Position numbers and translations under genes: made by a program | In this document: positions 8,759 to 24,269 of the stretch, piece after piece | Position numbering within the stretch: position 1 is the stretch's first letter | Layout: every line of letters begins with the position of its first letter | The notes under the pieces: generated by a model | Told to the model about the DNA's origin: nothing | What the model saw: only the letters and a program-made list of their open reading frames with translations | The model's database searches: none | Source of the DNA: Nitrosarchaeum sp. | GTDB lineage: Archaea > Thermoproteota > Nitrososphaeria > Nitrososphaerales > Nitrosopumilaceae | Reading direction: 5' to 3' | DNA: 64,000 nucleotides | Assembly: GCA_025699025.1 (NCBI GenBank) | Contig: JAILWJ010000003.1 | Location: 278,192 to 342,191 of the forward strand

Positions 8759-8832
8759 GGGTCTATGGCGCAGCCAGGTAGCGCACCGGACTTTTAATCC
8801 GGTTGTCGTGGGTCCGAATCCCACTAGACCCG
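8759..8832 (+). tRNA. tRNA-Lys(TTT), integration target of the island
   Basis: 74-nt cloverleaf: acceptor gggtcta pairs with tagaccc, anticodon stem ccgga/tccgg, loop cttttaa with anticodon TTT, T stem gtggg/cccac. Discriminator G, then encoded CCA at 8833-8835. Its last 15 bases are repeated at 21544-21558, so the tRNA was kept intact when the element inserted at its 3' end. Confidence 0.96.
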
Positions 8833-8833
8833 C
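8819..8833 (+). repeat. attL: left attachment repeat inside tRNA-Lys
   Basis: 15-bp sequence identical to 21544-21558. It covers the 3' strand of the T stem, the acceptor strand, the discriminator and the first base of CCA. A shorter echo, gacccgcca, recurs at 8857-8865, between the tRNA and the integrase reading frame. Confidence 0.85.
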
Positions 8834-8877
8834 CATCCTTATTGGTCTTAAAATACGACCCGCCACATTATGTATCA

Positions 8878-10278
8878 TTGAAGATAAACTATGATGATAT
8901 CAACAGCAGAAACAATCCATACCAGCTATTCCTAGACAACATCAAGAGTCCAGAGACTGAAAGAAAATACAAAAAGATGCTAGAGAGATTCCTGCTATCC
9001 ATTCCAGATCAGATATATGAAAACAAAAAGATAAAGTCAGACCTCAAAAATATGGTAAAGCATTTTGTTGCCCTTGCAAAAAAGAATCCAGATTTGGCAA
9101 CTGACATCATTGCAACATACATCAAAGAGGAAAAAAAGCTGGTAGAGGCAGGCAAGCTAAGCTCAGGAACACTAGAGAATCATATCAAGCCAATCAAGGT
9201 GCTACTTGATGCAAACAGAATCGCCATACACTGGAAGTCCCTGCACAGATTATACCCAAGAAAGCAGAGCACCACAAATGACAGGGCATACACAAAAACA
9301 GAACTGCAAAAGATGCTAGAGGTTGCACGAGACCTCACAGACAAGGTGATAATTACCGTATTCTCATCAGGGGGATTCAGGCTAGAGGCGTGGAACTATT
9401 TTACATGGAAGGACATCAAGCTATTCAAGAATCAAGACGGTTCCTACAAGGGAGGAGCCTTGTTAGTATACAGTAATGACGAGGAGAGCTACTGGACTCA
9501 CATCACTCCAGAGGCTTGCAAATACGTGGAGATGTACCGAGAAAAATGGAAGTCTGACATTGGGGTTTATCCAAAAGATGATCAGCCGTTTCTAAAGGCA
9601 GTAAAGTATCCCACTATCCACAGGCTGAATTCAACTGGCGTCAAAAAGAGAATCGGAAAAATTGTAAAGGCAATCGGTATGCGAGATTCATTGCCTGAAG
9701 GCAAGAAGAGATACGAGGTTCCACTAGATCACGGGTTTAGAAAATATTTCAACACCATGATGAGGCGTGCCAAGGTAAACTATCTGGACAAAGAGGACAT
9801 GATGGGACACAAGGTAGGATTGGAAAAACACTATGAGCGATATCAGGAAGAGGACTTTGAGCGATTCCCCGAGTATCAAAAGGCAATAGCATTTCTTACC
9901 ATATCAGATGAGGACAGGCTACGCTTTGAGAACCAGCAAAAGCAAGAGATACTAGATGAGGTTACGCAGAAAGACTATCAGATTGAAGACATGTCAGCAA
10001 GACTAAGCGAGGTGGAAAACGAGGTGAAAAACGGGCGGAACACAAGATGGAACTCACTTTTCCAAGAATCTTTCAGACATCAAGACAATGAGAAGGTACA
10101 GCTGATTCTTACCCTGTTGCACATGTGGTTTGAGATGAGGGCAACAGAAGAGGAAAAACAAGCGTTATGGAAGAAGCTCCAAGACGCAAAAAAGGAAGGA
10201 AAACCACTAAACATCATGGATATGTTAGATCCAGACAAGGATGAGCTTAGCTGGAAGAACCTCTACTCCAAAAAGTAA
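8878..10278 (+). CDS. Tyrosine recombinase (integrase) of the island
   Basis: Catalyses site-specific integration and excision at tRNA-Lys. The catalytic set is complete: Arg in GFRLEA, HxxR in HGFRKYF, His in MMGHKVG, and the nucleophile Tyr in LEKHYERY. An N-terminal core-binding domain precedes it and a charged coiled-coil tail of about 140 residues follows. The open frame runs back to a TTG at 8803 inside the tRNA, but residues encoded there are only a reading of tRNA sequence; no ATG is in frame before the domain, so I place the start at TTG 8878 (467 aa), with low certainty. GC content is higher than in the cargo and similar to the terminase genes at 21.7-23.9 kb. Confidence 0.88.
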   Translation: MKINYDDINSRNNPYQLFLDNIKSPETERKYKKMLERFLLSIPDQIYENKKIKSDLKNMVKHFVALAKKNPDLATDIIATYIKEEKKLVEAGKLSSGTLENHIKPIKVLLDANRIAIHWKSLHRLYPRKQSTTNDRAYTKTELQKMLEVARDLTDKVIITVFSSGGFRLEAWNYFTWKDIKLFKNQDGSYKGGALLVYSNDEESYWTHITPEACKYVEMYREKWKSDIGVYPKDDQPFLKAVKYPTIHRLNSTGVKKRIGKIVKAIGMRDSLPEGKKRYEVPLDHGFRKYFNTMMRRAKVNYLDKEDMMGHKVGLEKHYERYQEEDFERFPEYQKAIAFLTISDEDRLRFENQQKQEILDEVTQKDYQIEDMSARLSEVENEVKNGRNTRWNSLFQESFRHQDNEKVQLILTLLHMWFEMRATEEEKQALWKKLQDAKKEGKPLNIMDMLDPDKDELSWKNLYSKK

Positions 10279-10307
10279 ATCCAATCATTCTCTACATCGA
10301 TACAAGT

Positions 10308-10324
10308 CGTTAATCGGATTAACG
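10308..10324. repeat. 17-bp perfect palindrome after the integrase
   Basis: cgttaatc-g-gattaacg, 30 bases past the integrase stop. The half-site core gttaa recurs several times in the next 250 bases. A binding site for an excisionase or replication protein is possible; nothing shows which. Confidence 0.6.
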
Positions 10325-10356
10325 CTACTTCTTACAACCATGCAAGACCCATTTTT

Positions 10357-10591
10357 TGTAGAGGTCGTTAGGCATGACGTGTTAGGCATGAATAGTAGAT
10401 GTAGAGGTCACGAAGTCCAGATGTAGAGATTGTTAAAGATTGTAATGCCTAACGATATGTTAACAGCCGTTAATAGTGCATAGTCGTTAGAGATATCATT
10501 TGTAAGAACATGTAGAAAAATTTGTGCCTAACGTTAATGTATAATGTAAGAAGTGTTAAACCTGACGCCATATCTGACACAATCTGTCAGG
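10357..10591. repeat. Cluster of short direct and inverted repeats (iteron-like), no gene
   Basis: The 678-base gap 10279-10956 has no credible ORF. It holds gttaggcat at 10367-10375 and 10381-10389, its reverse complement atgcctaac at 10445-10453 and a near copy gtgcctaac at 10524-10532; tgtagaggtc at 10357-10366 and 10400-10409; and overlapping hairpins ctgaca/tgtcag (10574-10590) and cctgac/gtcagg (10561-10591). A further gtcagg lies at 10641. Such clusters mark origins, recombination accessory sites or operators of integrative elements. The remaining part to 10956 is AT-rich with nothing I can name. Confidence 0.55.
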
Positions 10592-10956
10592 CTTTACGTA
10601 CAAAATATTGCTATTCTACTATTTCAAAATCTATCTTAGTGTCAGGTCATTACATAGCAGAGAATTAATTTTTTAAGTTTTGATTTGAGTTTTTTATTTT
10701 TGGTATAACCTTGTTTTACAGGGATGTATTCTTTATCACATCTTGTAGATAAATATGCCTTATGTGGATGATTTTATTTCTGATTTGCCCAAAACTTCTT
10801 TTGATAACATGTTATAACTACACATAATCATATAAAATTATGATCAATAACATAATAACCCGATCAAGCATTGTCAATTTTTCAGATGTGATCAATGAAG
10901 AAAAATCAAATATTTTGATTGATCTGTTTTAAATCTCAGAAAAGCCATACAATTTT

Positions 10957-11217
10957 ATGAATAATGGTGCAATAGCCCTTCTTGGCGGTTTGGGATTATT
11001 GGCAGTAGGTGTTTCTGTAAAAAAGAAAATACAATATTTGGAGAATCAGATCAGATTACTCAACTCTCGAATTTCCTCCCTAATCAATGAGAGGGATGAA
11101 TTAACTAAGATCCTTAGAAACAAGGATTCTGAAATTGCAGAAAAAAATACTGAAATTTCTAAGAAAAATCAAGAGATAGAAAATCTCAAAGATCAATTAA
11201 AAAGTAGAGAAAAGTAA
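10957..11217 (+). CDS. Small membrane-anchored coiled-coil protein
   Basis: 86 aa. Residues 5-22 are a glycine/leucine-rich membrane segment (AIALLGGLGLLAVGVSV), followed by KKK and a continuous coiled coil to the end with repeated glutamate/lysine heptads. The positive residues after the helix suggest the coiled coil is cytoplasmic. First cargo gene of the island after the repeat cluster. No family recognised. Confidence 0.65.
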   Translation: MNNGAIALLGGLGLLAVGVSVKKKIQYLENQIRLLNSRISSLINERDELTKILRNKDSEIAEKNTEISKKNQEIENLKDQLKSREK

Positions 11218-11292
11218 TTACTCTGGTTTTGTTATTTAAATCTCTTTGTTACAATTACTCGACAAATACCGGAGTAAACAGAATCAACCAAA

Positions 11293-11712
11293 TCATATTT
11301 TCCATTTTTTCTTTGCTTTGTTAATTAATGTACAAAATACTTTTTTTTCTATCACCTTTCGCCCAATGTTTAACATCATATTCTTTGGAGGATCTATACC
11401 GTCATTCCAATTCTTGGTTACAAGCATAATTTTGAATTTAATTCTGTTTTCCCATAGTGATTTATTAAAAATTTTTTCATCGGGCCACATTATATCATTA
11501 GAAGTAAATTTTTCAGATATTTTTCCAAATCCAATTATTTTTTGAATCGGTTTTGTGGCATAAAATGCTACCAATTCACCCTCCATAATTGTATTCCACA
11601 ATCCAATATTTTTTTTTGAGAATCCCCACTGATTGTATTCTAATGCAGTTTTCCAAGACGTTTCATCTCCAACTAATATGTAATATCGAGGTCGATCTAT
11701 GGATTTATTCAA
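11293..11712 (-). CDS. Stand-alone EVE-domain (PUA-like) protein
   Basis: 139 aa, entirely one EVE domain: YYILVGDETSWKTALEYNQW at the start, then GLWNTIMEGELVAFYATKP and IIGFGKI. EVE domains belong to the PUA-like superfamily and are thought to bind modified DNA or RNA bases; in prokaryotes they are often fused to or beside modification-dependent restriction enzymes. Here it faces away from the type IIG gene that starts 92 bases later. A second EVE domain forms the N-terminus of the 909-aa fusion at 16.6-19.3 kb. Confidence 0.85.
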   Translation of the reverse strand: MNKSIDRPRYYILVGDETSWKTALEYNQWGFSKKNIGLWNTIMEGELVAFYATKPIQKIIGFGKISEKFTSNDIMWPDEKIFNKSLWENRIKFKIMLVTKNWNDGIDPPKNMMLNIGRKVIEKKVFCTLINKAKKKWKI

Positions 11713-11804
11713 TAATGGTTTTTTTTAATACCCATGTTTAACTTTGTCTTATTCCGATTCAATAGATCTTTGAAAATCAATACTTAATACCAGAATGCAA
11801 ATTT

Positions 11805-14800
11805 ATGAGATATACAACTTTGAAAATACTTGAAGATATAGAAAAAGAATTACCAGTGTATACGTCAACTATCAAAGATAAATATTCTGAAAATAGCAAA
11901 GCCATGTATTTTTCTTCTTTTATAACAAAAATGTTCAATGTTGAACCTGCCGAGATCGATATGGAAGTGCCAACAAAATCATTTTTTTTAGGTCTTAGAG
12001 GGAGAATAGATGCTCTTCTTGGTCATTTAATTTTAGAATTCAAGAAAGATCTTAGAAATAGTATAGAAGAGGCAAAAGAAGAATTAATAAAATATCTTCA
12101 GAGCTATCATGAAAAATTTCCAGAGGAGGATTACATAGGAATTGCAACAGATGGAATTCTATTCAAAGTTTTTCAACCCATTTTTGACTTTTCAGAACAT
12201 CATGAAAAAGTAGCGGTAAAAGGTTTAGAAGAAATAGATTCATTAGATTTAGAAATTGAAAGAGAACCTGAGAAGATATTCTTATGGTTTGATTCTTATT
12301 TATTTTCGGCAGACAAAATTACTCCAACTTCACTAGATATTAAAAAAAGATTTGGAGTTCTTAGTCCAACATATGCAAAAGCACATTATGAAATTTTGAA
12401 ACTGTTTGAATCAATTAAGGATACTCTTCCTGTAAATACAAAACTAAAAAACTGGTCAAAGTATCTAGAAGTAGTTTATGGAGACGAAGAAAAAGAAATT
12501 GATCTTTTCTTACGACATACATATCTAGCCACATTAGTTAAATTAATTGTCCACATTAGACTTTCAAAAGGACAAATACCAAATAAAGATGAAATGTGGC
12601 AAATATTACATGGGACAAGGTTCAAAGCATTTGGAGTTTTGAATTTTGTAGAACAGGATTTCTTTACGTGGATTACATATTTTCCAACACAGTATATTTC
12701 AAATCCATTTTTATACAAATTATTAAAAGAATTGATGGTTTATGATCTAGGTAAAATTGATGAAGATGTTTTAAAAGAACTCTATCAGGAACTTGTAGAA
12801 CCAGAATACAGACAACTTTTGGGAGAATTTTACACGCCTGATTGGTTGGCTCAGATGACAATTGAAAAAACTATGGAAGATAATTTCACAGGTAGCGTAT
12901 TAGATCCTTCATGTGGATCAGGTACATTTTTGTTTTTATCAATAAGATACAAAATAAAAAAACTAGAAGGGAAATTAAATCCAAAAGATCTCTTAGAACA
13001 CATATTAAATTCAGTACGTGGTTTTGATATTCACCCACTAGCTGTTACTATCGCAAAAACCAACTATCTTTTGGCATTAGGAGATTTAATTAATTACAAA
13101 TCACATTCGATTGAAATACCTGTTTATCTTTCAGACTCTGTAAAACTGCCATCCCAAAAATCAAACTTGGATAATCCTGAACCATTTTTTGAATTTCAAG
13201 CAGACAATAAAAAAAGTTTCAAATTACCAGTTAATATTACAACAGATAAAAAAGGTTTTGAAGATATTTTAGAAAAATTATCTAGCCATACAGAACCATA
13301 TTCCAATAGCTATTACAGATACAAAGATAATAGCAAGCGCATGAAAGACGTTACACTACATCAAACTAAAATCAATTTACTAGAAAGTTTCAAGAACTAC
13401 ATCAAAGTTTTAAATTCAGAATATGCAAAAGTGTGGCTGGAAAATTACAATACGTTAATTGAATTAATTGATGAAGAAAGAGACTCGATTTGGATTTACA
13501 TAATGAAAAATGGGTATAAACCGATTTCACTTACTCATCAAAAAGTAGATTTCATCGTAGGGAATCCTCCATGGATAACAATGGCAAAAATGAAAAATGA
13601 ACATTACCAAAATTTCTTGAAAAACTCTACTGAATACTATGGTTTAGCAGATCCTAAAAAAACAGAACAGTACCCTCATATGGAATTAGCTAGTTTATTT
13701 TTCTGTATAGTTACAGACATTTATTTGAAATCTGAAGGAAAGATAGGATTTGTCATGCCAAGATCAATTTTAGTAGCATCTCATCATCGGAATTTTATTA
13801 AATTTAATAAACCAAATATGAAATTAGAAAAAATCATAGATTGTGAAAATGTTTCAAACCTATTCAAAGTTCCTTGTTGTTCAATAATTGCATCAAAAGG
13901 AAGTGAAACCAAATATCCTGTCACAAGTATTAATTTAAAAGGTAAAATTTCAAAAAAAAATTCTTCTTTAGAGGAAGCAAATAAAATATTATCTGTAGAC
14001 GTATCAAAATATGAACCATTTTCTTTAGATGTAAAACCAAGTGACTATTATGAGTATTTTTACCAAGGAGCAACCATTGTGCCGAGGAATCTATACTTTG
14101 TACAATTAGTTCAAGATCCATTTATGGGAATAAACCCTCAAACTCCAACTGTAAAAAGTAATGAAAAAAATGTTACTCAACCACCATGGAATAAAATAAC
14201 AATTCAAAGTGCAATAGAATCTAATTTCTTATTTGCTTCTCTATTGGGAGAAGACGTAGTTCCATTTGGACACAAAGAATTCAGATTGGTGGTATTACCA
14301 ATATTAATTGAAAAAGACAAACATATTTTATTAGAGAATCACTCCGAATTTCAACAACGAAGTTTCTTAGCAGCATCAACATATTTTGAAGAAGTGGAAA
14401 CAAAATGGCAAAATAATGCAACAGATAAATCAAAACGAATGACACCTTATCAAAGATTAAATTTTAGAAAGGGTATTACTGGTCAAAACCCTAAGAAAAG
14501 ATTCAAAGTATTATTTGTAGCATCATCAACATATTTAGCTGCATGTATAGTAGATATGGATGAAAATATAATTCATAATGAAAATAATTTTGAAATTAAT
14601 TTGTCGGGGTTTATTGCAGAAAGTAAAACATATTATTTTGAAACAGATGATGAAAATGAAGCCCATTACTTATCAGCGATATTAAATTCAAAGATTTTGG
14701 ATAATCTTATGAAACCATTACAAACAAGAGGCTTATGGGGGGCTAGAGATTTTCATAAACGTCCATTATTAGCTCCAATACCGAAATTTAACAAATTAAA

Positions 14801-15002
14801 TGAAACTCATTTAAAATTAGCAGAAATAGGAATTACATGTTCTAAGAATATTCCAACATTATTAAAAAACTCAAAAATTTCCAATATCGGTCTATTAAGA
14901 AAATATATCAGAAAACAATTAGAAACTGAAATTAAACAAATAGATGAACTGATAAAGATAATTTTTCTAGAACATGATGGAAACATATCAAAATACATTT
15001 GA
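11805..15002 (+). CDS. Type IIG-like restriction-modification protein (nuclease-methyltransferase fusion)
   Basis: 1065 aa. N-terminal PD-(D/E)xK-like nuclease core: Asp69 and EFK at 78-80 (GHLILEFKK). Adenine methyltransferase core: LGEFYTPDWLA, SAM motif LDPSCGSGTFLF near residue 365, and catalytic motif IVGNPPW near residue 585. A long C-terminal part, ending in helices, would be the target recognition region. This is the single-chain layout of type IIG enzymes that cut and methylate with one specificity. No separate S subunit or helicase is near, which argues against type I, BREX and DISARM. Very AT-rich with codon use unlike the core genes, so probably acquired. Confidence 0.88.
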   Translation: MRYTTLKILEDIEKELPVYTSTIKDKYSENSKAMYFSSFITKMFNVEPAEIDMEVPTKSFFLGLRGRIDALLGHLILEFKKDLRNSIEEAKEELIKYLQSYHEKFPEEDYIGIATDGILFKVFQPIFDFSEHHEKVAVKGLEEIDSLDLEIEREPEKIFLWFDSYLFSADKITPTSLDIKKRFGVLSPTYAKAHYEILKLFESIKDTLPVNTKLKNWSKYLEVVYGDEEKEIDLFLRHTYLATLVKLIVHIRLSKGQIPNKDEMWQILHGTRFKAFGVLNFVEQDFFTWITYFPTQYISNPFLYKLLKELMVYDLGKIDEDVLKELYQELVEPEYRQLLGEFYTPDWLAQMTIEKTMEDNFTGSVLDPSCGSGTFLFLSIRYKIKKLEGKLNPKDLLEHILNSVRGFDIHPLAVTIAKTNYLLALGDLINYKSHSIEIPVYLSDSVKLPSQKSNLDNPEPFFEFQADNKKSFKLPVNITTDKKGFEDILEKLSSHTEPYSNSYYRYKDNSKRMKDVTLHQTKINLLESFKNYIKVLNSEYAKVWLENYNTLIELIDEERDSIWIYIMKNGYKPISLTHQKVDFIVGNPPWITMAKMKNEHYQNFLKNSTEYYGLADPKKTEQYPHMELASLFFCIVTDIYLKSEGKIGFVMPRSILVASHHRNFIKFNKPNMKLEKIIDCENVSNLFKVPCCSIIASKGSETKYPVTSINLKGKISKKNSSLEEANKILSVDVSKYEPFSLDVKPSDYYEYFYQGATIVPRNLYFVQLVQDPFMGINPQTPTVKSNEKNVTQPPWNKITIQSAIESNFLFASLLGEDVVPFGHKEFRLVVLPILIEKDKHILLENHSEFQQRSFLAASTYFEEVETKWQNNATDKSKRMTPYQRLNFRKGITGQNPKKRFKVLFVASSTYLAACIVDMDENIIHNENNFEINLSGFIAESKTYYFETDDENEAHYLSAILNSKILDNLMKPLQTRGLWGARDFHKRPLLAPIPKFNKLNETHLKLAEIGITCSKNIPTLLKNSKISNIGLLRKYIRKQLETEIKQIDELIKIIFLEHDGNISKYI

Positions 15003-15098
15003 AATTCAGAAAATATGCTGCATGATAGTTTGTTTGAAACCCGATAAATAGTAAACGTGTCTAATATTTGACCAAAATACAGATTTGTAATAATATAG

Positions 15099-16580
15099 TT
15101 ACAAACTCACTGATTCATGTTGATTCACAGATATTACATTAGTATGCCATTTTTTGTGGTATTCATCATGTTGGGTATGAATCGGGACTAGTTTTTTGGA
15201 GTTTGAGCCCTCAATTACCTTCTTTATCTGAGTGCCATCCCCATGACCAGACACATGAATCTGGTGCCAGTTCTGCTCTTTTTTCAATATGCCAAAGTGC
15301 GTAAACCAGTTTTTTACCTGCTCTTCTTTTAGCTCCATTTCAGTATCAAACGGTTCGGTCAATGAACGGATGTAGGTTGCACCCTCATCAGGTTTGATAT
15401 CGATTAGATCCTGTAGCCTAAAGTCGCTGCAAAAGAATATGAAATCTTTCTGGTTTGCCTTTATTCCTCTATAGTCAATCGCATTTGGATAATCCAAGAA
15501 TTCCCTTTGCCACTCTGCATAATCCATGTATAGCTGTCGTCTGGAGAATTTATCCAGATCTTTATCAATCAATCCCCATGATCCCCTTGGAATGTATATC
15601 TTGATGTTCTTATCCGTTGGGGATGGATAATGCCCTCTCAGATTTTCGGATTCATAAAATAGTTTGAGTAGATATGCTTGCTTCATGTCAATTACCAAAT
15701 CCCTATTGGTTTGTTTTGCAGATTCGTAAAATGACAGCAATCTATCCAAATCTCTAATCGGATAACCACATATTGCCAATCCCTTTGTGTTGTTTACAAT
15801 TTCTGAAACATTGGTCTCTACATCATATTCAGTCAAAGACGGTAGTGCATCAACTCTGGTTCCCTCACAAAGCAAATAATCCAATGACGATTCGCCACAT
15901 CTGTCAACAAATTTTTCAGTGTCTTTGCTTCTTCTCCCATGAAATCTTAAATCAGCAGTATTGCCAATTGAACCTTCAGATGTATGCAGGATGAACGCGT
16001 GAACTCCTGCGATTGAATGATCAACAGGCAACGGTTCCACCTTGATTGAATCTATTGAAAATTCCTTGTTAGATTGAAATATTTTGATTATACGTGGTGC
16101 TAGTACCTTGTCTCCAGTGGCGCGACTGATTTCACCTTTGCTGTTTTGATATACTTGGAATTTTTCTTTTAATGTGAGATATTGATCATTTCCAGTATCA
16201 TCAAAGTTTTGCATGATTAACTTGGATTCCTCAGAGCAGAAAATTGGAATGTCTGCTCTAAGATATGGAATGTATGCGCAATGATCAACATGGGCATGGG
16301 TTAGCAGAATTCCATCTACCTGTGTCTCTTCGTCTCCACCAAAACCCATATGTTTTGCAAAATCTCTGCGATAAAGTCCCTTGATCTTAGGCAGTATTCC
16401 AAGTTCAAAGAGATCAATTAAGCTGTTAGATGCACGGGCATTTAGAAACTGTGAGAAGAATTTTCCTTCATGGGAAAAAGACATTCCAAAATCCATGAAA
16501 ATTGTGGTGTCTTTGTCTTTGACTAGGAATTTGTTTCCTCCAATGTCATTTACTCCTCCATGGAATGTAATGTATGTCAT
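15099..16580 (-). CDS. Beta-CASP metallo-beta-lactamase-fold hydrolase, last gene of the putative defence operon
   Basis: 493 aa. Metal site THAHVDH at about residues 94-100, a second His in LPVDHS, and C-terminal beta-CASP-type motifs VSGHGDG (444-450) and VPIHTQH. This is the architecture of RNase J/CPSF-type nucleases, which cut RNA; some relatives process DNA. It resembles RNase J-like RNA hydrolases more than quorum lactonases. Its ATG overlaps the stop of the 909-aa fusion gene by one base (taatg), so the two are translationally coupled. Being in the island, it is unlikely to be the housekeeping archaeal RNase J. Target unknown. Confidence 0.82.
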   Translation of the reverse strand: MTYITFHGGVNDIGGNKFLVKDKDTTIFMDFGMSFSHEGKFFSQFLNARASNSLIDLFELGILPKIKGLYRRDFAKHMGFGGDEETQVDGILLTHAHVDHCAYIPYLRADIPIFCSEESKLIMQNFDDTGNDQYLTLKEKFQVYQNSKGEISRATGDKVLAPRIIKIFQSNKEFSIDSIKVEPLPVDHSIAGVHAFILHTSEGSIGNTADLRFHGRRSKDTEKFVDRCGESSLDYLLCEGTRVDALPSLTEYDVETNVSEIVNNTKGLAICGYPIRDLDRLLSFYESAKQTNRDLVIDMKQAYLLKLFYESENLRGHYPSPTDKNIKIYIPRGSWGLIDKDLDKFSRRQLYMDYAEWQREFLDYPNAIDYRGIKANQKDFIFFCSDFRLQDLIDIKPDEGATYIRSLTEPFDTEMELKEEQVKNWFTHFGILKKEQNWHQIHVSGHGDGTQIKKVIEGSNSKKLVPIHTQHDEYHKKWHTNVISVNQHESVSL

Positions 16581-19309
16581 TATCTGCTCCAGTGCTCGGA
16601 GATGTAGTTATGAGCTTCTTCCATGTTTAGAGGTTGACAAGTATTATTTGCACGAATAAAGAAGAGTTTCTCATTATTTTTAGAAAGATAAATTGGCCTA
16701 GGTGCTGATTTTATCTTACAGTGACATACTTCACTATTGTTGATGGGTATAAAATTTAATTCAACGTAGGCATTAGCATTTCTATCTAGATATTTGTTTA
16801 TGAGATTAGTAATATGTTGAGCAAATCCATCTGAGCTTTTGTCACGAAATGTAGAATAATCGTTTTCCAAACCAATAGGATTTCCATCGTCATCTACTCC
16901 AATTAACAAATCACCCCCACCTGAATTCATAAAACAACAAATCTCTTTGGCAATGACTTCTTCAAGAGCAGAATTTTGTTGATTTTGTTTTATGTCCCAT
17001 CTCATAGATGATTTGTATTCTAATCTATGAGATTCTTTTTTGTGTAATAAATTTTCAATTACATTTTCTGTTGTTGATTCAATAGGCATGATCAATTTGC
17101 GTAATGTCTCTCGAATTGTCTCTTTTCGTGCCTGAATGAATCCATCAAAGTCATCTCGCAAAAGACAATCAAAGGCAATATCTGAAATCAAATGAGTCTT
17201 TAGTCTTCTTCTTAGAACTGATTCATCAATTGATTGTCCATCAATAATGTCTTGAAGATACTTCATTGGTTTTTTGTCTCTAATGTAGTTTCGATTTGTA
17301 TCACTGCTTAACAAAGTTCTATTTAGAATTGAATGAATGGAAGTTTCACTATGATAATCTTTTTCTTTTGATTTTGGAAATATGTGGTGATCATCTAACG
17401 TGCTATATTCTGGAGGTTCATCTGTAACAAAGTCGCTAGCTCCACTTTTTGAAATTAAGCACATAATGGTTCTATAAACTGAATCATTAGGTCTTGTACT
17501 GTCAAAATTCAAAGAATCAAACTTTTGTCTTTGTTCTAAGACAATTTCTGGTATATCATTATCATCATGAAACCATTGAAGGATTTCACGGTAGTCTTTT
17601 TCAATCTTAGAATCTGTAGAACCTGAATAACTATCAGAAGTTACTGCTGACCAATACCAATTTTGAATCTTGTTCATACATTTTGGTCTGTCATCTCTTT
17701 TCTCAATTTTGTACATTAATGCAGACAGGATTGGAATTATAATGGTGTAGGGAATGATAGAGAATTTTACAGCACCAAATCCAGATTCTCTTTGAGATTC
17801 CAATCTGGAAATTGCCTTTGATGTATATTCGCAGATTTTTAGCCAGTCTTTAAGAAATTCATCTTTTTGGAATTGTTTGAGTTCTGTATATGCAGAATCA
17901 AGTGACAATAGTTCCTTTCTACGAGTGTATCCCTTCTTGAATAGCCCCATTCCCTGAAGAATATATTTTTCAGCGTCTTCAATCACATTGTACATTTTCT
18001 CAATATTATCATAATCAGATTTTGCCCGATCCCAAAGAATTCGCAAATTTACATCATATTTGTTGAATCTTGCATTAAGAAGATCAAACACTCCCAGTCT
18101 AGTGCCTTTACTGTTAATTTTCTCAAATACTTCTGCAACACTATCAAGTGAAAGAGTTTTTGGAAGTTGTACTACGGGAATTTTGTATTGAAACCACACA
18201 TGATCTAAAATGCTTAAAATTTGTCTATAGTAGTTTTCAGATTCTTCATCATCAAAGTCTTCAACCTCTTTAAGATAATTCTTAAATTCATTTATCCATA
18301 ATGTGTAATTTCTATTGTTAAATTCAGTTATTGGAAAGATTTTTTTTGCAAATTGTTTTTCCTTATCCAAATATCCCCATCTTTCAGCTCTGTCAGTACG
18401 TTCAGAAAATACGATATCAGATGAGCTTGCATTTGGATCAAGTAATGCTTTAAGATCAACAAAAAATCGCATAGAACGGTTATCAGGTAATGGAACATTG
18501 GGAGCTGTTACAGCATAAAATAACGAAGTGATACGTTGTTGCCCATCAAGTACAATGTCAGAAGCGTTATTCAGTTCAGGTGCACCATGTACTGGAATTG
18601 TCGCAAAAGGTTCATCTGAATTCCAAGTAAGAATAGAGCCTACAAAGAATCCTTGAAAAATTGATTCCCATAACTCTTCAATTTGTTTCCGCTTCCATGT
18701 ATACTCTCGTTGAAAAATTGGAATTGCATATTTCCCGTTTTTAATATCATTGATTATGTAATCAATGCTTTTCAAATTTGGAGGAGGTAATTCATGTATT
18801 CTTTCTTTAATAAAATTCCAAGAATATACTGGAATAAACTCTTCAATGTCTATTGCATTTTGAGATTTATCTTCATATGGTTTTTCTTGAACCTGTTTTA
18901 GTTCTTCTAATAACACTTGATAATCATGTTCTGAAATTGGTTTAGCAAAGTTTGCAGGGCCATGAGGTGTTCCTCGAATATACAGACCGATATTCTTTTT
19001 GCTTTCTATGAATTCAAGTTTATCAATTAATTTTCTAAGACTGGCATAGCCCAATTGGATTTGTTTTAGATCTATTTCAGATACTGAATCGGCGGGTCTA
19101 TTTTGATCTGGCCATTCTATTGTAGGTGGATGCCAATCACTTGTGACTTCAAAAATTCCTTGGAAATATCGTGATTTGTTAACATAGAAAATTATGTGAT
19201 CTCCTTTTACAACTCTTTCTCCTTTTCCCTTAGTATTTACTGCCCAAACTTTTTTCTCTTTTACAGTAGGCCAATTTTCAGGAGTTACAGGCCATATCCA
19301 GTTTTTCAA
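16580..19309 (-). CDS. EVE-DUF262-HNH(DUF1524)-AlbA_2 fusion, GmrSD-like modification-dependent nuclease
   Basis: 909 aa with four recognisable parts. Residues 1-130: EVE/PUA-like fold (WIWPVTPENW, KGDHIIFYV, FQGIFEV). About 180-420: DUF262, with IPIFQREYTWK and the DGQQR nucleotide-hydrolysis motif at 255-259. About 560-720: DUF1524-type HNH nuclease with DDHHIFPKSK at 639-648 and the later NRTLLSSDTNRNYI. 754-905: AlbA_2/Schlafen-type domain with LEYKSS, MNSGGGDLLIGVDDDGNPIGL. DUF262 plus DUF1524 is the GmrSD type IV restriction core that cuts modified DNA; the EVE domain could read the modification and AlbA_2 domains occur in RNA- or nucleotide-acting defence proteins. The combination is unusual. 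Confidence 0.85.
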   Translation of the reverse strand: MKNWIWPVTPENWPTVKEKKVWAVNTKGKGERVVKGDHIIFYVNKSRYFQGIFEVTSDWHPPTIEWPDQNRPADSVSEIDLKQIQLGYASLRKLIDKLEFIESKKNIGLYIRGTPHGPANFAKPISEHDYQVLLEELKQVQEKPYEDKSQNAIDIEEFIPVYSWNFIKERIHELPPPNLKSIDYIINDIKNGKYAIPIFQREYTWKRKQIEELWESIFQGFFVGSILTWNSDEPFATIPVHGAPELNNASDIVLDGQQRITSLFYAVTAPNVPLPDNRSMRFFVDLKALLDPNASSSDIVFSERTDRAERWGYLDKEKQFAKKIFPITEFNNRNYTLWINEFKNYLKEVEDFDDEESENYYRQILSILDHVWFQYKIPVVQLPKTLSLDSVAEVFEKINSKGTRLGVFDLLNARFNKYDVNLRILWDRAKSDYDNIEKMYNVIEDAEKYILQGMGLFKKGYTRRKELLSLDSAYTELKQFQKDEFLKDWLKICEYTSKAISRLESQRESGFGAVKFSIIPYTIIIPILSALMYKIEKRDDRPKCMNKIQNWYWSAVTSDSYSGSTDSKIEKDYREILQWFHDDNDIPEIVLEQRQKFDSLNFDSTRPNDSVYRTIMCLISKSGASDFVTDEPPEYSTLDDHHIFPKSKEKDYHSETSIHSILNRTLLSSDTNRNYIRDKKPMKYLQDIIDGQSIDESVLRRRLKTHLISDIAFDCLLRDDFDGFIQARKETIRETLRKLIMPIESTTENVIENLLHKKESHRLEYKSSMRWDIKQNQQNSALEEVIAKEICCFMNSGGGDLLIGVDDDGNPIGLENDYSTFRDKSSDGFAQHITNLINKYLDRNANAYVELNFIPINNSEVCHCKIKSAPRPIYLSKNNEKLFFIRANNTCQPLNMEEAHNYISEHWSR

Positions 19310-19394
19310 TAATTATATTTTATGCATGGATAATTAAGTAAATCTCCTAAAATCATAAAATAAGATTTAATTTTTACAATTTTAAAAGATCATC

Positions 19395-19619
19395 TCATTT
19401 TTTAGAATCTTTTAATTTTGAACGTTCTTTTTTTACTACATCAATTGTAAGTCCTGTAATATTTACAGTATCTTCAATTGTAAGTCCTAGATTCTTTAAT
19501 AGGGGAATTTTGTCTTTTGATTCTTTAATTGATGAAGATGCCAAAATTCCAATCACTTTATCTAATTTTAGGCTAATTTCTGATAGTAATTCTTTTTCAG
19601 ATTTTTCTTTTTTTACCAT
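19395..19619 (-). CDS. Small HTH-like protein (pair 1, second gene)
   Basis: 74 aa. N-terminal charged helix (LKLDKVIGILASSS), then LLKNLGLTIEDTVNITGLTIDVVKKER, a sigma-region-4-like helix-turn-helix. It starts one base after the stop of the winged-HTH gene upstream and lies 85 bases before the 909-aa fusion gene. It is the likely counterpart of the 56-aa protein at 20785-20955. Probably a regulator or a DNA-binding partner of its neighbour. Confidence 0.7.
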   Translation of the reverse strand: MVKKEKSEKELLSEISLKLDKVIGILASSSIKESKDKIPLLKNLGLTIEDTVNITGLTIDVVKKERSKLKDSKK

Positions 19620-19620
19620 T

Positions 19621-19905
19621 TTAGATCTTTACATATACTGTTCTTCTGTTCATTATGGCTGATTTTATAATTCCTTTTTTACGTAAATGACTTAATGTGG
19701 ATTCTACGTTATTTCTTTTCTTAGATGTAATTTCCATAATCTCTGTGATTGAGTTTTTACCATTACATAATTTTAAAATTGCTTTTTCTTCAGATCCTAA
19801 TTTTGGAGGTTTAGATAATGTTTTTTGTAAAGAAATCAAAATGGAAAGTTTTCCATCAATATCTTTTAACGTTTTTAACATTTGATCTATTTTTTTGTCA
19901 TTCAT
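19621..19905 (-). CDS. Small winged-HTH protein (pair 1, first gene)
   Basis: 94 aa. An N-terminal helix with alternating hydrophobics (MLKTLKDIDGKLSILISLQ) is followed by a winged helix: EKAILKLCNGKNSITEIMEI, recognition helix NNVESTLSHLRKKGII, and the wing NRRTVYVKI. It overlaps the HEPN gene by eight bases and is followed by the 74-aa HTH gene. The divergent 97-aa protein at 20955 has the same layout. Likely an operon regulator, possibly a partner that restrains the HEPN toxin. Confidence 0.75.
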   Translation of the reverse strand: MNDKKIDQMLKTLKDIDGKLSILISLQKTLSKPPKLGSEEKAILKLCNGKNSITEIMEITSKKRNNVESTLSHLRKKGIIKSAIMNRRTVYVKI

Positions 19906-20695
19906 TTTTTGTATTTCCTAATTTCTTATTTTTAATATTTGGCTGTTTCTCTATTAATGTACAAATATACTTGGTTCGAATTTTAATATTATCTTGTTCT
20001 TCTTTTGATGTTTTAATATTATGTGCTAAAAGATGTCTGATCGGAATACATTCCTCAATCCAAGTTTTTAATTTAGTTAATTCAAAAATATTTTTGAAAT
20101 ATGGATTGTAACTCATTTCAATAATTTTGAGTAAATGTTCTAACCCTACATAGTAAATTGGATGATCTCCTCTTGTATCTAACCACCTGTGTTTTTTTTC
20201 AGCATCCATTATTGTTTGAGCATATTTCTGAATATCTGGTTTTACAATTTTTGTATTTGTCCACCAATTTTTTTCATCTTGGAATTTTTTCAAGATTAGA
20301 TCTCTTAAAGAATTTTCTAAAATATAGACATGTGGGTAAATGTCAGCATTTTGATTTGCATTAGTGATGTATCTCTGCCCATATGAAGTAATAGTTTTTT
20401 TTGCTTTAATTTTTCTATTTGATTGATTTTTTTTAGGCGAAGGTGATAAATCTTTTAGATATTGTAAGCTATTGACATCATCTTTAGATAAATAACGATA
20501 TACACTAATCCCATGATTTTTTCTTGCCCATTCATAAGCTGCTGCACTACTTGTTATCCCATGATTATCTTTTTTAATTTTTGATGCTCCATCTCTGATG
20601 GATTGTTTTTTAATTTTTTTATTTTTTATAATTGTGTGATTCAAAATTTTGTTTAATACAACTTCGTTGATTTTGTCTCTAGCCACAACCATCAT
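19898..20695 (-). CDS. Swt1-like HEPN-domain protein, putative ribonuclease
   Basis: 265 aa. The N-terminal 95 residues are basic and look like a helical or winged-helix DNA-binding region. From about 118 on it follows the Swt1-type HEPN pattern: HVYILENSLRDLI, KNWW, then DHPIYYVGLEHLLKII, and near the end IRHLLAHN, where Arg220 and His225-Asn226 form the RxxxxHN catalytic signature of HEPN RNases. HEPN proteins in defence loci usually cut tRNA or mRNA on infection. It is the first gene of the minus-strand run that ends with the beta-CASP gene. Confidence 0.8.
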   Translation of the reverse strand: MMVVARDKINEVVLNKILNHTIIKNKKIKKQSIRDGASKIKKDNHGITSSAAAYEWARKNHGISVYRYLSKDDVNSLQYLKDLSPSPKKNQSNRKIKAKKTITSYGQRYITNANQNADIYPHVYILENSLRDLILKKFQDEKNWWTNTKIVKPDIQKYAQTIMDAEKKHRWLDTRGDHPIYYVGLEHLLKIIEMSYNPYFKNIFELTKLKTWIEECIPIRHLLAHNIKTSKEEQDNIKIRTKYICTLIEKQPNIKNKKLGNTKNE

Positions 20696-20784
20696 TATTT
20701 GATGACTATAAAATTATTATCATATTCCCATAAAATGATGAAATTTTGAGTAATGTTAATCTAAGTCTAAATTGATTTTCAATT

Positions 20785-20955
20785 ATGGTTGAGAACACTG
20801 ATATAGAAAAAGAAATTGAAAAACTAAAAAAATTACTTGCCTTACTCTTGTATCATAATGATGTACCACCATTAGACATTGCAAAAGCTGCTGAGATAAG
20901 CCCTAATGATCTATACAAATTTGTCACAAAAAAGAAAAAAGGTGTTAAGAAATAA
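20785..20955 (+). CDS. Small HTH-like protein (pair 2, first gene)
   Basis: 56 aa: MVENTDIEKEIEKLKKLLAL, then DVPPLDIAKAAEISPNDLYKF, a helix-turn-helix with sigma-region-4 character, and a lysine-rich tail. Stop and the next start overlap as taatg. Divergent from the HEPN gene across a 89-base gap with TATA-like sequences for both directions. Confidence 0.7.
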   Translation: MVENTDIEKEIEKLKKLLALLLYHNDVPPLDIAKAAEISPNDLYKFVTKKKKGVKK

Positions 20956-21248
20956 TGTCTGATGAAAAGATACTCTACAAATTAGATGTAATTGCAAAAT
21001 TACTCTTTATGCAAACTAAGAATGATTTAGAAAATTTAGAATCTAAATTAATCAAGACTGATAAACAAAAGAAGCTTTACCACTCACTTGATGGACAGAG
21101 AAACATGGAACAACTTCATATGTTGACAGGTATTTCTGTGAAAACTATGGAACCAATCCTTCCAGAATGGGAAAAGAGAGGATTGATACTTTCCTTTGGA
21201 AAAGGAAAAAGTAAACGATATTTGAATATAGAACACCTAGAAATATAA
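20955..21248 (+). CDS. Small winged-HTH protein (pair 2, second gene)
   Basis: 97 aa. Layout as in the 94-aa protein on the other strand: an amphipathic N-terminal helix (ILYKLDVIAKLLFMQTK), a winged helix (QKKLYHSLDGQRNMEQLHML, then SVKTMEPILPEWEKRGLI) and a wing ending SKRYLNIEHLEI. Last gene before the right attachment repeat. It and its 56-aa partner are probable regulators of the island or an accessory part of the neighbouring operon. Confidence 0.72.
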   Translation: MSDEKILYKLDVIAKLLFMQTKNDLENLESKLIKTDKQKKLYHSLDGQRNMEQLHMLTGISVKTMEPILPEWEKRGLILSFGKGKSKRYLNIEHLEI

Positions 21249-21510
21249 TTTTCAAGATATCGTTGATAATTTTTTTCTTGAGCCTCATCAACACTCAGAC
21301 AGTAGTTTATAGTCTGTTTTCAATTCTAGTTTTTTCTAAATAATCACGAAAAAATGACATAATGTAGTACAATAATTCCAAATCCTCAATTTACTACAAA
21401 ATTTGATATCTTAAGAAAAATAGAAGAATATTTTTTCATGCAATAATGAAGTATTGTAAGATTAGGTAATCTCAGTGATTGCAAAAAACAGTGAATTTAG
21501 CCATAAAATC

Positions 21511-21558
21511 GGGTCTGAAATTAGACCCATAAAGGTATATCAGTCCCACTAGACCCGC
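21511..21558. repeat. attR: right attachment repeat with nearby hairpin
   Basis: tcccactagacccgc at 21544-21558 repeats the tRNA-Lys 3' end exactly. Just before it, gggtct at 21511-21516 and agaccc at 21523-21528 form an inverted repeat that mimics the tRNA-Lys acceptor stem. The remaining gap from 21249 to 21674 is AT-rich and has no gene that I can support. Confidence 0.82.
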
Positions 21559-21674
21559 TTCCCTCTAGCATCTTTTCTGAGACTCGTGTAGCATAGTAAT
21601 TCAATGCAAACATCCAACCAGGAAAGGTTCTACCAGAACATAATCAGCATGTACCAAAACATACTACAAAAACA

Positions 21675-23429
21675 CTAGGCCATCTGCCACTCTACATTCT
21701 GCTCGAGTCCCACCATCGCATAGATGATGCTCATCACAGAGTCACGCGGATGGTTGAACTCTTTTCGCACATCTGACTTTTTGGAATTGTCCTTGCCAAT
21801 GTCCTTGCGCGTTATTGATACAAAGTCAGAGACCAACCAATCAGTTTCATGCTCTATCAAAAACGGAATCATAAATCTAGAGCGCTCACACGACTTGTCA
21901 TTCCTTGTCGGGTGCGACTTTGAAGAGTCTAGAAGATCCACAAATCTCTGAATTGACGTTGTCTTGTCAATTGAAAACCTGCCAATCTCGTCTCCGTGCT
22001 CGTCGCGCACATCACTGTACATCTGCATCGGCTTGCTCTCGTTGCTGATAGTCCTGCACCCGTAAAACCTATCGCTGCCAACACCACCAAATATCTTTCC
22101 TGTGCTCCTGTTTGCTCCACCCTCTTGCATCGTCTTTACCGGGATTGCACCATACCCAAGGTCGCCAACGCCAACGTCGCACCGACACGCCTTAAACAGC
22201 CTGCTTATGTACTCAGTTTGATCCAACTGATTCTCTGCTGGTCGCTTGTCAATGTATGCAAGCTGTATCCTATTAGATTTCTTCCAGTGGATTAGAATGG
22301 ATATAACAGTATGCGACGGGTTGCCAGACCCAAAATCAATACCCATTGAGACATTGATGGAATTCTGCATCACATATTTCCACATTGCAATCTCCTTGTA
22401 GCTCATCAACCCCATGTACTTGTACGGGTTCATGCAGCGATACACCATCTGCGGGGTGACCGGTCTCCTCTCTGATCTGTAGAATCGCCCCATGACGTGC
22501 GATGCAAAAAATGCCGCTGTGTTGTTTTTTTTCTGGTATTCGATGGAGTAAAACGGGGCGATATGGTATTTTTGTATGGCATCATTGATTGTAAGCGGAT
22601 GTGTCGCAAAGATTGTCTGTGGTATGTGGTATCCGTGGTATAGTGTGTTTTCAGGTCTTTGCGGAACCCATCTACCCCTTAGCACATCACCAAGGTATGA
22701 ACCCATCACCAGTCCGCCCTCATCAAACTGCAGTCTGTCGCGCCAGTTTGGATCGTCGTAGATCCACTCCCGCTGATCGGATTTTTCCCACAGTTTGTGG
22801 TATGCAGAGCCGGACTCGCCGCCAATCCCAAGTATTGACAGTCTGCCCTTGGTAGCCATCATCGTCTGCCTTATTTTCTCTAAATACTCAATGTCCTGAT
22901 ATTGCGCCTCATCTAGTATGCAGTGGTTTAGGGATTTCCCTTCGACGTGGATGTACTGATTGTTGTCCGTCATGCAATATATCGTACTACCGTTTTTCAG
23001 TGAAATTTCTCCCATGTTTCCCAGTTTGTTGCGAGGAAATTTCGACAGGATTGGATTTTGGCTAAACGTGCCAATCTGCAGTTTCTGCTTTGAAAACCCG
23101 GTAAGATTTGACTGGTTGAAGGTTACATAACCCACTTGCGCCCCCGGTGCAGACGTTGCCTCGTATGCCAAAATGTCTGTGATATATGTGGATTTGAATA
23201 TCTGGCGACCGCCAATTATAATTTTAGAGTGATAGTCATCAAGGTAAATGTCTTTCCAGAACGGTGCCGCAACAAACGTCCTTGCCTTTCCCTCCACTAT
23301 CGGTCGGAATTTTTGTATCCACTCCAGCGGGTCTGACGGTGCAAAATCTAGCGCACATGTTGCAGATTTTTTTATTTGTGCAAGCGCCTTTTTTGCAAGC
23401 CTGTCGTGCTGCAACACCCAATCAGGCAA
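21675..23429 (-). CDS. Phage-type terminase large subunit (TerL)
   Basis: 584 aa. ATPase part: GGRQIFKST at 73-81 (the deviant Walker A of terminases), LDEAQ at 172-176 (Walker B). Nuclease part: MGIDFGSGNPSHT near 362-374 with the first catalytic Asp, VGDLGYG, and the late FNHPRDSVMSI segment. This is the complete packaging motor and headful nuclease of tailed viruses. It follows TerS with an 8-base overlap, the normal gene order. No portal, protease, capsid or tail gene is nearby. GC content is higher than in the island cargo and neighbouring core genes. Confidence 0.87.
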   Translation of the reverse strand: MPDWVLQHDRLAKKALAQIKKSATCALDFAPSDPLEWIQKFRPIVEGKARTFVAAPFWKDIYLDDYHSKIIIGGRQIFKSTYITDILAYEATSAPGAQVGYVTFNQSNLTGFSKQKLQIGTFSQNPILSKFPRNKLGNMGEISLKNGSTIYCMTDNNQYIHVEGKSLNHCILDEAQYQDIEYLEKIRQTMMATKGRLSILGIGGESGSAYHKLWEKSDQREWIYDDPNWRDRLQFDEGGLVMGSYLGDVLRGRWVPQRPENTLYHGYHIPQTIFATHPLTINDAIQKYHIAPFYSIEYQKKNNTAAFFASHVMGRFYRSERRPVTPQMVYRCMNPYKYMGLMSYKEIAMWKYVMQNSINVSMGIDFGSGNPSHTVISILIHWKKSNRIQLAYIDKRPAENQLDQTEYISRLFKACRCDVGVGDLGYGAIPVKTMQEGGANRSTGKIFGGVGSDRFYGCRTISNESKPMQMYSDVRDEHGDEIGRFSIDKTTSIQRFVDLLDSSKSHPTRNDKSCERSRFMIPFLIEHETDWLVSDFVSITRKDIGKDNSKKSDVRKEFNHPRDSVMSIIYAMVGLEQNVEWQMA

Positions 23430-23868
23430 GTGCCCTGCTCTCCTTGAGATACTGTTCCAGCTTTACATCTGCAGTGGGGTTGAGTAACAGGTTTGATTTT
23501 TGCAGCAACAGGTGCGAAATTTTGTCAGACAGGTTAATTGAAATTTTGTAAAGAGGAATCAAATGGCGCATGCTTTGTTGTCTGTCTATATCAGAATTGA
23601 TCTTGTCTTGCAGCTTGTGCAGATGTAACAGCTGGTCATCTATTGCAATCACACACTGCTGGATTGTATTTTTTGAATTTTCCACAAAGTCAGAGCTTGT
23701 AGACATGCGAGTTTGGAGTGAAAACTTGCGGTAATATTTTTTTACGGTGTTGATGTTCAATCCAGTTTTCCTTGATGCAGTGGATGATGATATCATCTTT
23801 GCAAAGTATGGCCACAGTTTTTGCTCGATGTGTATCTGCTCTGACTTGTTAGGGCGTCCGTGGTTCAT
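23422..23868 (-). CDS. Putative terminase small subunit (TerS)
   Basis: 148 aa. N-terminal helix-turn-helix (GRPNKSEQIHIEQKLWPY, then STASRKTGLNINTVKKYYRKF) followed by a long helical oligomerisation region and a hydrophobic C-terminal third. Small terminase subunits have this HTH-plus-helices layout and bind viral DNA. The identification rests mainly on its overlap with terL. A gagg sequence about 10 bases before the ATG gives a plausible ribosome site. Confidence 0.7.
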   Translation of the reverse strand: MNHGRPNKSEQIHIEQKLWPYFAKMISSSTASRKTGLNINTVKKYYRKFSLQTRMSTSSDFVENSKNTIQQCVIAIDDQLLHLHKLQDKINSDIDRQQSMRHLIPLYKISINLSDKISHLLLQKSNLLLNPTADVKLEQYLKESRALA

Positions 23869-24269
23869 GATGAGGTCCTCAAAATTAGAGCTCAGTGTAC
23901 TAAGATATTAGTATTAAATGAACATAGATCGAAAAAATTTCAACTGTCCTGTACCGCAAATCAGGGTACCAAAAAACATGGTTCAACATGTCGCATCAAA
24001 AAAACAAAATGTTCTGATAGACAAATTATTTAACATGATGTTTTGTGCAACATAAGAAACTCATAATTTATGCAACAAGTCACATCACAGCATCTCAGAT
24101 ATATAAACAAAAAATAACTTCCAACTATTTTAGACTATTTTACAGGCATGGACAAGGCATGTTTTTGTGCGTAACAATGAAACCAATTCTGCAAAAGGCT
24201 GACTTCCCAGATTAAACAGGTACAAAAATAGTCAGAAAAAGCCCAAAATGCGTCCCGCGACCCTGATTC
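23869..24269. other. 401-base gap between terS and argH
   Basis: No ORF that I can support. It has a TATA-like gatatataaac near 24097 readable on both strands and a tcccgcgaccc string near 24253 that only weakly resembles the island repeat. It may hold the TerS promoter and the outer boundary of the terminase segment. Confidence 0.4.

What the first reader, a model, noticed from the sequence alone, without database searches (positions are those of the whole stretch)
16580..19309. Four-domain GmrSD-like single protein with EVE reader and AlbA_2 end
Typical GmrSD has DUF262 and DUF1524 only. Here an N-terminal EVE domain (1-130) and a C-terminal AlbA_2 domain (754-905) are added. The DGQQR and DHHIFPK motifs are intact, so both core activities may work. 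The EVE domain offers direct sensing of a modified base, and AlbA_2 a third effector.
Basis: partly seen in the sequence, partly recalled or inferred. Interest (0 to 1): 0.7.

Follow-up and report, generated by a model that had tools for sequence, protein, structure and literature searches.

The report
Two-ended GmrSD restriction enzyme, archaeal island
A marine-type ammonia-oxidising archaeon carries, on a mobile DNA island, one protein that appears to join a reader of modified bases, a virus-DNA-cutting enzyme and an RNA-cutting (Schlafen-type) domain, which would let one molecule both recognise invading DNA and shut down the infected cell.

Summary
ORF 16580-19309(-), 909 aa, TTG start, is intact. 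Pfam finds EVE (3-135), GmrSD_N/DUF262 (185-415) and Schlafen AlbA_2 (759-895) above gathering scores. The GmrSD_C/DUF1524 model misses the HNH part, but alignment and the BrxU fold match support it. An EVE-only AlphaFold model matches PH1033, YTH and THYN1; the AlbA_2 part matches prokaryotic and animal Schlafens, with the E-E-D triad intact (E759, E764, D807).

The parts are not new singly. EVE-GmrSD fusions are reported as rare (Bell 2020), and I found three Nitrosopumilaceae orthologues at 50% identity without AlbA_2. GmrSD-AlbA_2 fusions, apparently undescribed, recur in haloarchaea, Micrarchaeota, Sinorhizobium and IMG/VR contigs. Only the window shows all four domains among the family, class and phylum genomes sampled.

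The gene overlaps by 1 nt an RNase-J-like MBL/beta-CASP gene whose family recurs beside Mrr, McrB, type I, IIG and EcoO109I genes. All lie on a 15.4-kb island at tRNA-Lys, absent from three congeneric genomes.

Most likely: a type IV enzyme reading a modified base through EVE, cutting DNA through GmrSD and firing an AlbA_2 RNase. Ligand and activities are untested. Verdict: new variant of a known kind.

The parts
16580..19309 (-). EVE-GmrSD(DUF262-HNH)-AlbA_2 protein, 909 aa, TTG start
   Evidence: TTG start shared with EVE-GmrSD orthologues L003, L105, L106, L107, L125
18905..19303 (-). EVE domain, residues 3-135; possible base-binding aromatics W22 and W66
   Evidence: Pfam PF01878 2.5e-7; profile vs PH1033 1.5e-20; Foldseek 2hd9 E 1.5e-9; alignment to CPSF30 YTH
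18065..18757 (-). GmrSD_N / DUF262 (ParB/Srx-like NTPase), residues 185-415, QR at 200-201 and DGQQR at 255-259
   Evidence: Pfam 4e-36; BrxU and DndI fold matches
17090..17512 (-). GmrSD_C / DUF1524-type HNH region, about residues 600-740, DDHHIFPK 639-646, N663, N672
   Evidence: alignment A1, BrxU fold match; Pfam PF07510 itself not reached
16625..17035 (-). Schlafen AlbA_2 domain, residues 759-895; predicted catalytic E759, E764, D807
   Evidence: Pfam PF04326 9.3e-19; profile vs SLFN13/SLFN14; Foldseek 3lmm, 5yd0
15099..16580 (-). MBL/beta-CASP RNase-J-like protein, 493 aa, ATG overlaps the GmrSD stop by 1 nt (TAATG); HAHVDH motif at residue 95
19395..19619 (-). small 74-aa ORF upstream, function unknown
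19621..19905 (-). 94-aa winged-HTH protein
   Evidence: weak HTH hits
19898..20695 (-). HEPN_Swt1 protein (PADLOC candidate PDC-M34B), RHLLAH motif at residue 220
11805..15002 (+). type IIG restriction enzyme-methyltransferase (Eco57I/MmeI-like)
8834..24267 (.). genomic island inserted at the 3' end of tRNA-Lys, holding all of the above
   Evidence: window 8833 and 24268 are contiguous in congeneric genome L166; L165 and L167 agree
8803..10278 (+). tyrosine recombinase (XerA/integrase type)

Best explanation
It is a type IV (modification-dependent) restriction enzyme of the GmrSD/BrxU lineage with a sensor added in front and a second effector behind. Inferred working: the EVE domain holds a flipped-out modified base of invading viral DNA in an aromatic pocket (W22 and W66 as candidates); this places the GmrSD core on that DNA, where DUF262 (DGQQR) uses a nucleotide to control a BrxU-like dimer and the HNH site cuts DNA. 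The same activation frees or pairs the C-terminal AlbA_2 domains, whose Schlafen E-E-D site (E759, E764, D807) cuts tRNA or other RNA and stops translation if cutting the DNA is not enough. The translationally coupled MBL/beta-CASP protein is probably an exonuclease that degrades the products. Shown here: domains, folds, intact motifs, overlap with the MBL gene, mobile island. Inferred: ligand, substrate, order of events, RNase activity.
For: Pfam domains and fold matches at the core and both ends; E-E-D alignment to SLFN13 and conservation of E, E, K in all eight aligned AlbA_2 domains, D in seven with E in the eighth; EVE 59-62% identical between window and the three orthologues while the core is 48%, as expected for a conserved reader; AlbA_2 attached to several separate GmrSD lineages, in one case as an adjacent separate gene (L071, 32 bp) and in one in an overlapping frame (L113): repeated linkage suggests joint function; partner MBL family recurs beside restriction genes but not for the housekeeping RNase-J group; location in a mobile island with other defence genes. 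EVE-HNH endonuclease VcaM4I restricts 5hmC/5mC DNA and GmrSD/BrxU act on modified cytosines (PMC12707154); bacterial Schlafens in anti-phage defence (preprint cited in PMC12839542).
Against: No ligand or activity shown. EVE model confidence is moderate and the residue mapping to the YTH cage covers two of three positions. A single AlbA_2 domain is half of an animal Schlafen core, so activity would need dimerisation. Relatives of this AlbA_2 also occur in non-defence surroundings, e.g. beside an RND efflux operon. PF07510 not reached.
Confidence: 0.5

Rival explanations
1. RNA-directed system: the EVE domain, which models closest to archaeal EVE proteins and then YTH m6A readers, recognises modified RNA (or RNA-DNA hybrid), and AlbA_2 and the RNase-J-like partner are the main effectors; the GmrSD core is a nucleotide-driven scaffold.
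For: Two of three associated nuclease families (AlbA_2, RNase-J-like MBL) are RNases in their best-known members; Foldseek ranks YTH RNA readers right after EVE proteins; type IV systems predicted to target RNA exist (CoCoNuTs, PMC11090510, abstract only).
Against: HNH motif intact and the GmrSD family acts on DNA; the beta-CASP family also contains DNases; EVE-GmrSD orthologues keep the core without AlbA_2 or MBL.
Confidence: 0.2
2. AlbA_2 is not catalytic here but a nucleic-acid-binding or dimerisation module that strengthens DNA binding of an ordinary EVE-GmrSD enzyme.
For: AlbA_2 is absent from close orthologues that keep everything else, so it is dispensable for the core function; many prokaryotic AlbA_2 proteins have no shown nuclease role (own knowledge).
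Against: E-E-D triad and the lysine after it are kept in the window and nearly all fused relatives, which a pure binding module would not need.
Confidence: 0.2
3. Sensing is by the DUF262 core (as for phosphorothioate sensing by SspE and DndI) and EVE only gates or autoinhibits the enzyme, for example by binding the host's own modification.
For: DndI is the second-best fold match of the core and PADLOC SspE models hit the DGQQR region; the island also encodes an N6-adenine-type IIG methylase, so a host mark may exist that a reader could recognise.
Against: The core is closest to BrxU, not to SspE/DndI; no dnd/ssp genes were seen among the island ORFs examined.
Confidence: 0.1

Closest known systems
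BrxU (GmrSD-family type IV enzyme, PDB 7P9K/7P9M) and GmrSD/Eco94GmrSD
   Same: DUF262 with DGQQR plus C-terminal HNH; best fold match of the core, E 2.4e-14
   Different: No EVE and no AlbA_2; BrxU has a DH-type HNH motif, here HH; BrxU sits beside BREX genes, this one overlaps an MBL gene
EVE-GmrSD fusions (Bell et al. 2020, PMC7641849, 'rare fusions')
   Same: EVE fused to a GmrSD homologue; three Nitrosopumilaceae orthologues at 50% identity found here
   Different: No AlbA_2 in those orthologues, no coupled MBL gene
GmrSD-AlbA_2 fusions (found here: L032 Haloquadratum, L034, L033 Sinorhizobium, L089, L108 Micrarchaeota, IMG/VR L136, L137, L139)
   Same: AlbA_2 directly after the GmrSD C-terminal end
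   Different: No EVE; L108 has a different N-terminal part instead; cores only about 22-30% identical to the window
Bacterial/animal Schlafen RNases (SLFN13, SLFN14; prokaryotic AlbA_2)
   Same: AlbA_2 fold and E-E-D triad
   Different: One AlbA_2 copy instead of the pseudo-dimer, fused to a restriction enzyme
VcaM4I and other EVE-HNH type IV enzymes
   Same: EVE reader joined to an HNH nuclease (PMC12707154)
   Different: HNH here sits in a GmrSD core with an NTPase, plus AlbA_2
MBL nuclease accessories of Hachiman/AVAST/Lamassu (PMC12799240)
   Same: An MBL-fold nuclease gene repeatedly picked up by unrelated defence systems
   Different: Those are DNA-uptake-type MBL pro-nucleases activated by a protease; the one here is RNase-J/beta-CASP type, no protease seen

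Membership tests
GmrSD / type IV restriction family | DUF262 (PF03235) with QR and DGQQR motifs | tested here: met
   (125.4 bits vs 33.2)
GmrSD / type IV restriction family | DUF1524/GmrSD_C domain by Pfam model PF07510 | tested here: not met
   No hit at E 0.1; the closest orthologue L003 and other members of this subfamily are missed as well, so the model is narrow
GmrSD / type IV restriction family | HNH catalytic residues (H, N, N) in a BrxU-like fold | tested here: met
   H642, N663, N672 invariant; BrxU fold match over about 640 columns
GmrSD / type IV restriction family | NTP-dependent cleavage of DNA bearing modified bases | not testable with these tools
   needs biochemistry
EVE domain (PF01878) | Sequence above curated cut-off and PUA-like EVE fold | tested here: met
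   31.2 vs 23 bits; 2hd9 match
EVE domain (PF01878) | Binds a modified base | not testable with these tools
   W22/W66 aligned with YTH positions only
Schlafen AlbA_2 (PF04326) | Sequence above curated cut-off and fold | tested here: met
   68.5 vs 25.3 bits; 3lmm and SLFN matches
Schlafen AlbA_2 (PF04326) | E-E-D catalytic triad of SLFN13-type RNases | tested here: met
   E759, E764, D807 by alignment; numbering of the SLFN13 triad from own knowledge
Schlafen AlbA_2 (PF04326) | tRNA/rRNA cleavage | not testable with these tools
   needs biochemistry
SspE / DndI (phosphorothioate-sensing DUF262) | Encoded with dnd/ssp modification genes | tested here: not met
   No such genes among the island ORFs examined; the rest of the genome was not checked
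RNase J / beta-CASP (partner gene) | HxHxDH motif and RMMBL C-terminal region | tested here: met
   NCBIfam RNase J models hit far below cut-off, so RNase-J-like, not RNase J itself

The most novel reading that the evidence does not exclude
A single polypeptide couples modification sensing to two different effectors, DNA cleavage by GmrSD and RNA cleavage by a Schlafen domain, with a coupled RNase-J-like nuclease as a third; and that nuclease belongs to a family that archaeal restriction systems of types I, II and IV pick up repeatedly as a shared clean-up or fail-safe nuclease.
Probability: 0.3. Interest if true: 0.75.

Novelty: new variant of a known kind. Interest (0 to 1): 0.5.

Why it matters
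Restriction enzymes are usually thought of as one sensor plus one DNA cutter. If the AlbA_2 end is an active RNase, restriction and programmed translation arrest would be wired into one molecule, a direct form of the long-proposed coupling of immunity to suicide or dormancy. The repeated GmrSD-AlbA_2 fusions in archaea, bacteria and IMG/VR contigs make this testable in easy bacterial hosts. The recurrent RNase-J-like companion of unrelated archaeal restriction enzymes points to a shared accessory that, as far as the open literature searched here shows, has not been described.

Tried and rejected
Assembly or annotation artefact: rejected, one open frame, motifs intact, orthologues share frame and TTG start. 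Chance domain hits: rejected, all above Pfam cut-offs and supported by folds. Widespread four-domain family: not supported, only the window among 250 family genomes and the class and phylum samples; viral contigs gave no full-length relative, plasmids only three-domain ones. EVE in plasmids: none. EVE patterns in viral contigs gave no usable EVE domain. Conserved coupling of MBL to EVE-GmrSD: rejected, orthologues L105-L107 lack it. Origin of the window's AlbA_2: the AlbA_2 tree is unresolved. The first full-length AlphaFold model did not resolve EVE, so it was modelled alone. Bacterial-type promoter and terminator scans: no more than shuffles, not meaningful in archaea. The right flank 21560-24060 as a search probe found nothing in congeners, because it is itself part of the insertion.
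Full report
What is there. The open frame 16580-19309 (-) codes for 909 residues from a TTG start. A stop codon lies in frame just upstream, so TTG is the only usual start that keeps the EVE domain, and the EVE-GmrSD orthologues L003, L105, L106, L107 and L125 have TTG at the same place. Pfam places EVE at 3-135, GmrSD_N at 185-415 and SLFN_AlbA_2 at 759-895, all above the curated cut-offs. The GmrSD_C model is not reached, neither here nor in the closest orthologue, yet H642, F644, P645, K646, N663 and N672 are invariant in the alignment of the subfamily, and DGQQR is at 255-259.

Folds. A full-length AlphaFold model from 15 sequences resolves the GmrSD core and most of AlbA_2 but not EVE. 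Foldseek against the PDB gives BrxU (E 2.4e-14), DndI (4.5e-6), the AlbA_2 protein 3lmm (1.2e-3) and Schlafen 13 (probability 0.98). A separate model of residues 1-172 (pLDDT 62, pTM 0.64) matches the EVE proteins PH1033 (E 1.5e-9, TM 0.72) and MJECL36, then YTH readers of m6A, and THYN1 bound to 5mC DNA. A profile of seven EVE domains finds PH1033 at 1.5e-20 and the YTH domain of plant CPSF30 at 5.5e-5; in that alignment W22 and W66 fall on Trp residues of CPSF30 that, from my knowledge of YTH structures, belong to its cage. The AlbA_2 profile finds Schlafens 5, 8/13, 11, 12 and 14; the Glu-Glu-Asp triad of SLFN13 (residue numbers from my own knowledge) aligns with E759, E764 and D807.

Relatives. 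In the class sample of 400 genomes the best matches are two EVE-GmrSD proteins at 50% identity that end before AlbA_2; a third came with the full family of 250 genomes, and the named versions are Nitrosopumilus and marine group I genomes. EVE is better conserved (59-62%) than the core (48%) between these and the window. Two other relatives carry a different N-terminal part and a C-terminal end that I read as PLD-like from its sequence, without a Pfam hit; a Micrarchaeota protein has another N-terminal part, then GmrSD and AlbA_2. GmrSD-AlbA_2 without EVE occurs in Haloquadratum, haloarchaeon DL31, Sinorhizobium, a Nitrosopumilaceae genome and three IMG/VR contigs, one of them a 748-residue frame with DUF262, HNH and AlbA_2. 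In L113 the AlbA_2 part follows in an overlapping frame, and in L071 GmrSD and an AlbA_2 protein are neighbours 32 bp apart. In a core tree the window groups with the EVE-GmrSD orthologues (100/99), and AlbA_2-bearing cores sit on several separate branches; deep branches are long and partly open, and the AlbA_2 tree is unresolved. No other four-domain protein was seen in the family, class or phylum samples, so the complete architecture is so far a single case.

Partner gene. The stop TAA and the ATG of the next gene overlap by one base. That gene (15099-16580) is an MBL/beta-CASP protein, closest in the PDB to EF2904 (3.9e-22) and RNase J, with HAHVDH intact. Homologues at about 50-85% identity sit beside Mrr (8-nt overlap; that MBL is 81% identical to the window's) and HsdM, a McrB-like ATPase, type IIG enzymes, an EcoO109I-type enzyme and an SNF2 helicase; a more distant group sits beside an AlbA_2 protein (1 bp) and a GmrSD gene. 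Six of 25 close-group loci have such a same-strand neighbour shown by direct scan; not all neighbours could be scanned one by one. The neighbours of 16 RNase-J-like homologues of the housekeeping kind gave TldD, HAD and metabolic families and only four PADLOC families, against 517 PADLOC families among 83 neighbours of the window kind and the more distant group. I found no description of this in the papers searched; the nearest parallel is the MBL nuclease picked up by Hachiman, AVAST and Lamassu.

Mobile island. The three congeneric genomes run without a break from the end of tRNA-Lys (window 8833) to window 24268-24350, so 8834 to about 24267 is an insertion. It holds a tyrosine recombinase, a type IIG enzyme, the pair described here, a HEPN protein with an HTH gene, and at its right end a terminase large subunit. 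G+C is 0.31 from 10.3 to 21.5 kb against 0.38-0.39 outside. A 15-bp copy of the tRNA end lies at 21544-21558, perhaps an inner att site. Thaumarchaeal elements with an integrase, a restriction enzyme and a terminase relic are known (PMC6563490).

Judgement. The combination is new among the genomes searched and built from parts each already seen in pairs, hence a new variant of a known kind. The most interesting open points are whether AlbA_2 is an active RNase on a restriction enzyme, and why an RNase-J-like gene accompanies so many unrelated restriction enzymes in these archaea.

Noticed in passing
window 15099-16580 and L065, L073, L077, L078, L080, L082, L083, L090: RNase-J-like MBL/beta-CASP family recurs directly beside restriction genes of types I, IIG, IIP and IV in Nitrosopumilales; possibly a shared accessory nuclease of archaeal restriction systems.
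   Followed up: partly
window 21675-23868: Terminase large subunit (phrog_675, 3e-38) and a small neighbour at the right end of the island, G+C 0.44: probably a provirus relic, separated from the defence genes by a 15-bp copy of the tRNA-Lys end (21544-21558).
   Followed up: partly
window 19395-20695: HEPN_Swt1 protein (RxxxxH motif), winged-HTH protein and 74-aa ORF in one run upstream of the GmrSD gene; PADLOC candidate PDC-M34B.
   Followed up: no
window 11293-11712 and L090:1699-2127: Small EVE-like protein beside a type IIG/N6-methylase gene, with an MBL gene and a GmrSD gene following, in the window and in genome G241 (46% identical EVE-like protein): a similar set of four genes although the methylases are only distantly related.
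   Followed up: partly
L005, L006, L110: GmrSD proteins of about 1000 aa with an unknown N-terminal part and a PLD-like-looking C-terminal end in Nitrosopumilaceae and Woesearchaeota; no Pfam hit for either end in L005 and L006.
   Followed up: no
L127:1150-3471: 773-aa protein with HTH-like repeats and the same type of C-terminal AlbA_2 domain, next to a type I HsdR-like gene, on an IMG/VR contig.
   Followed up: no
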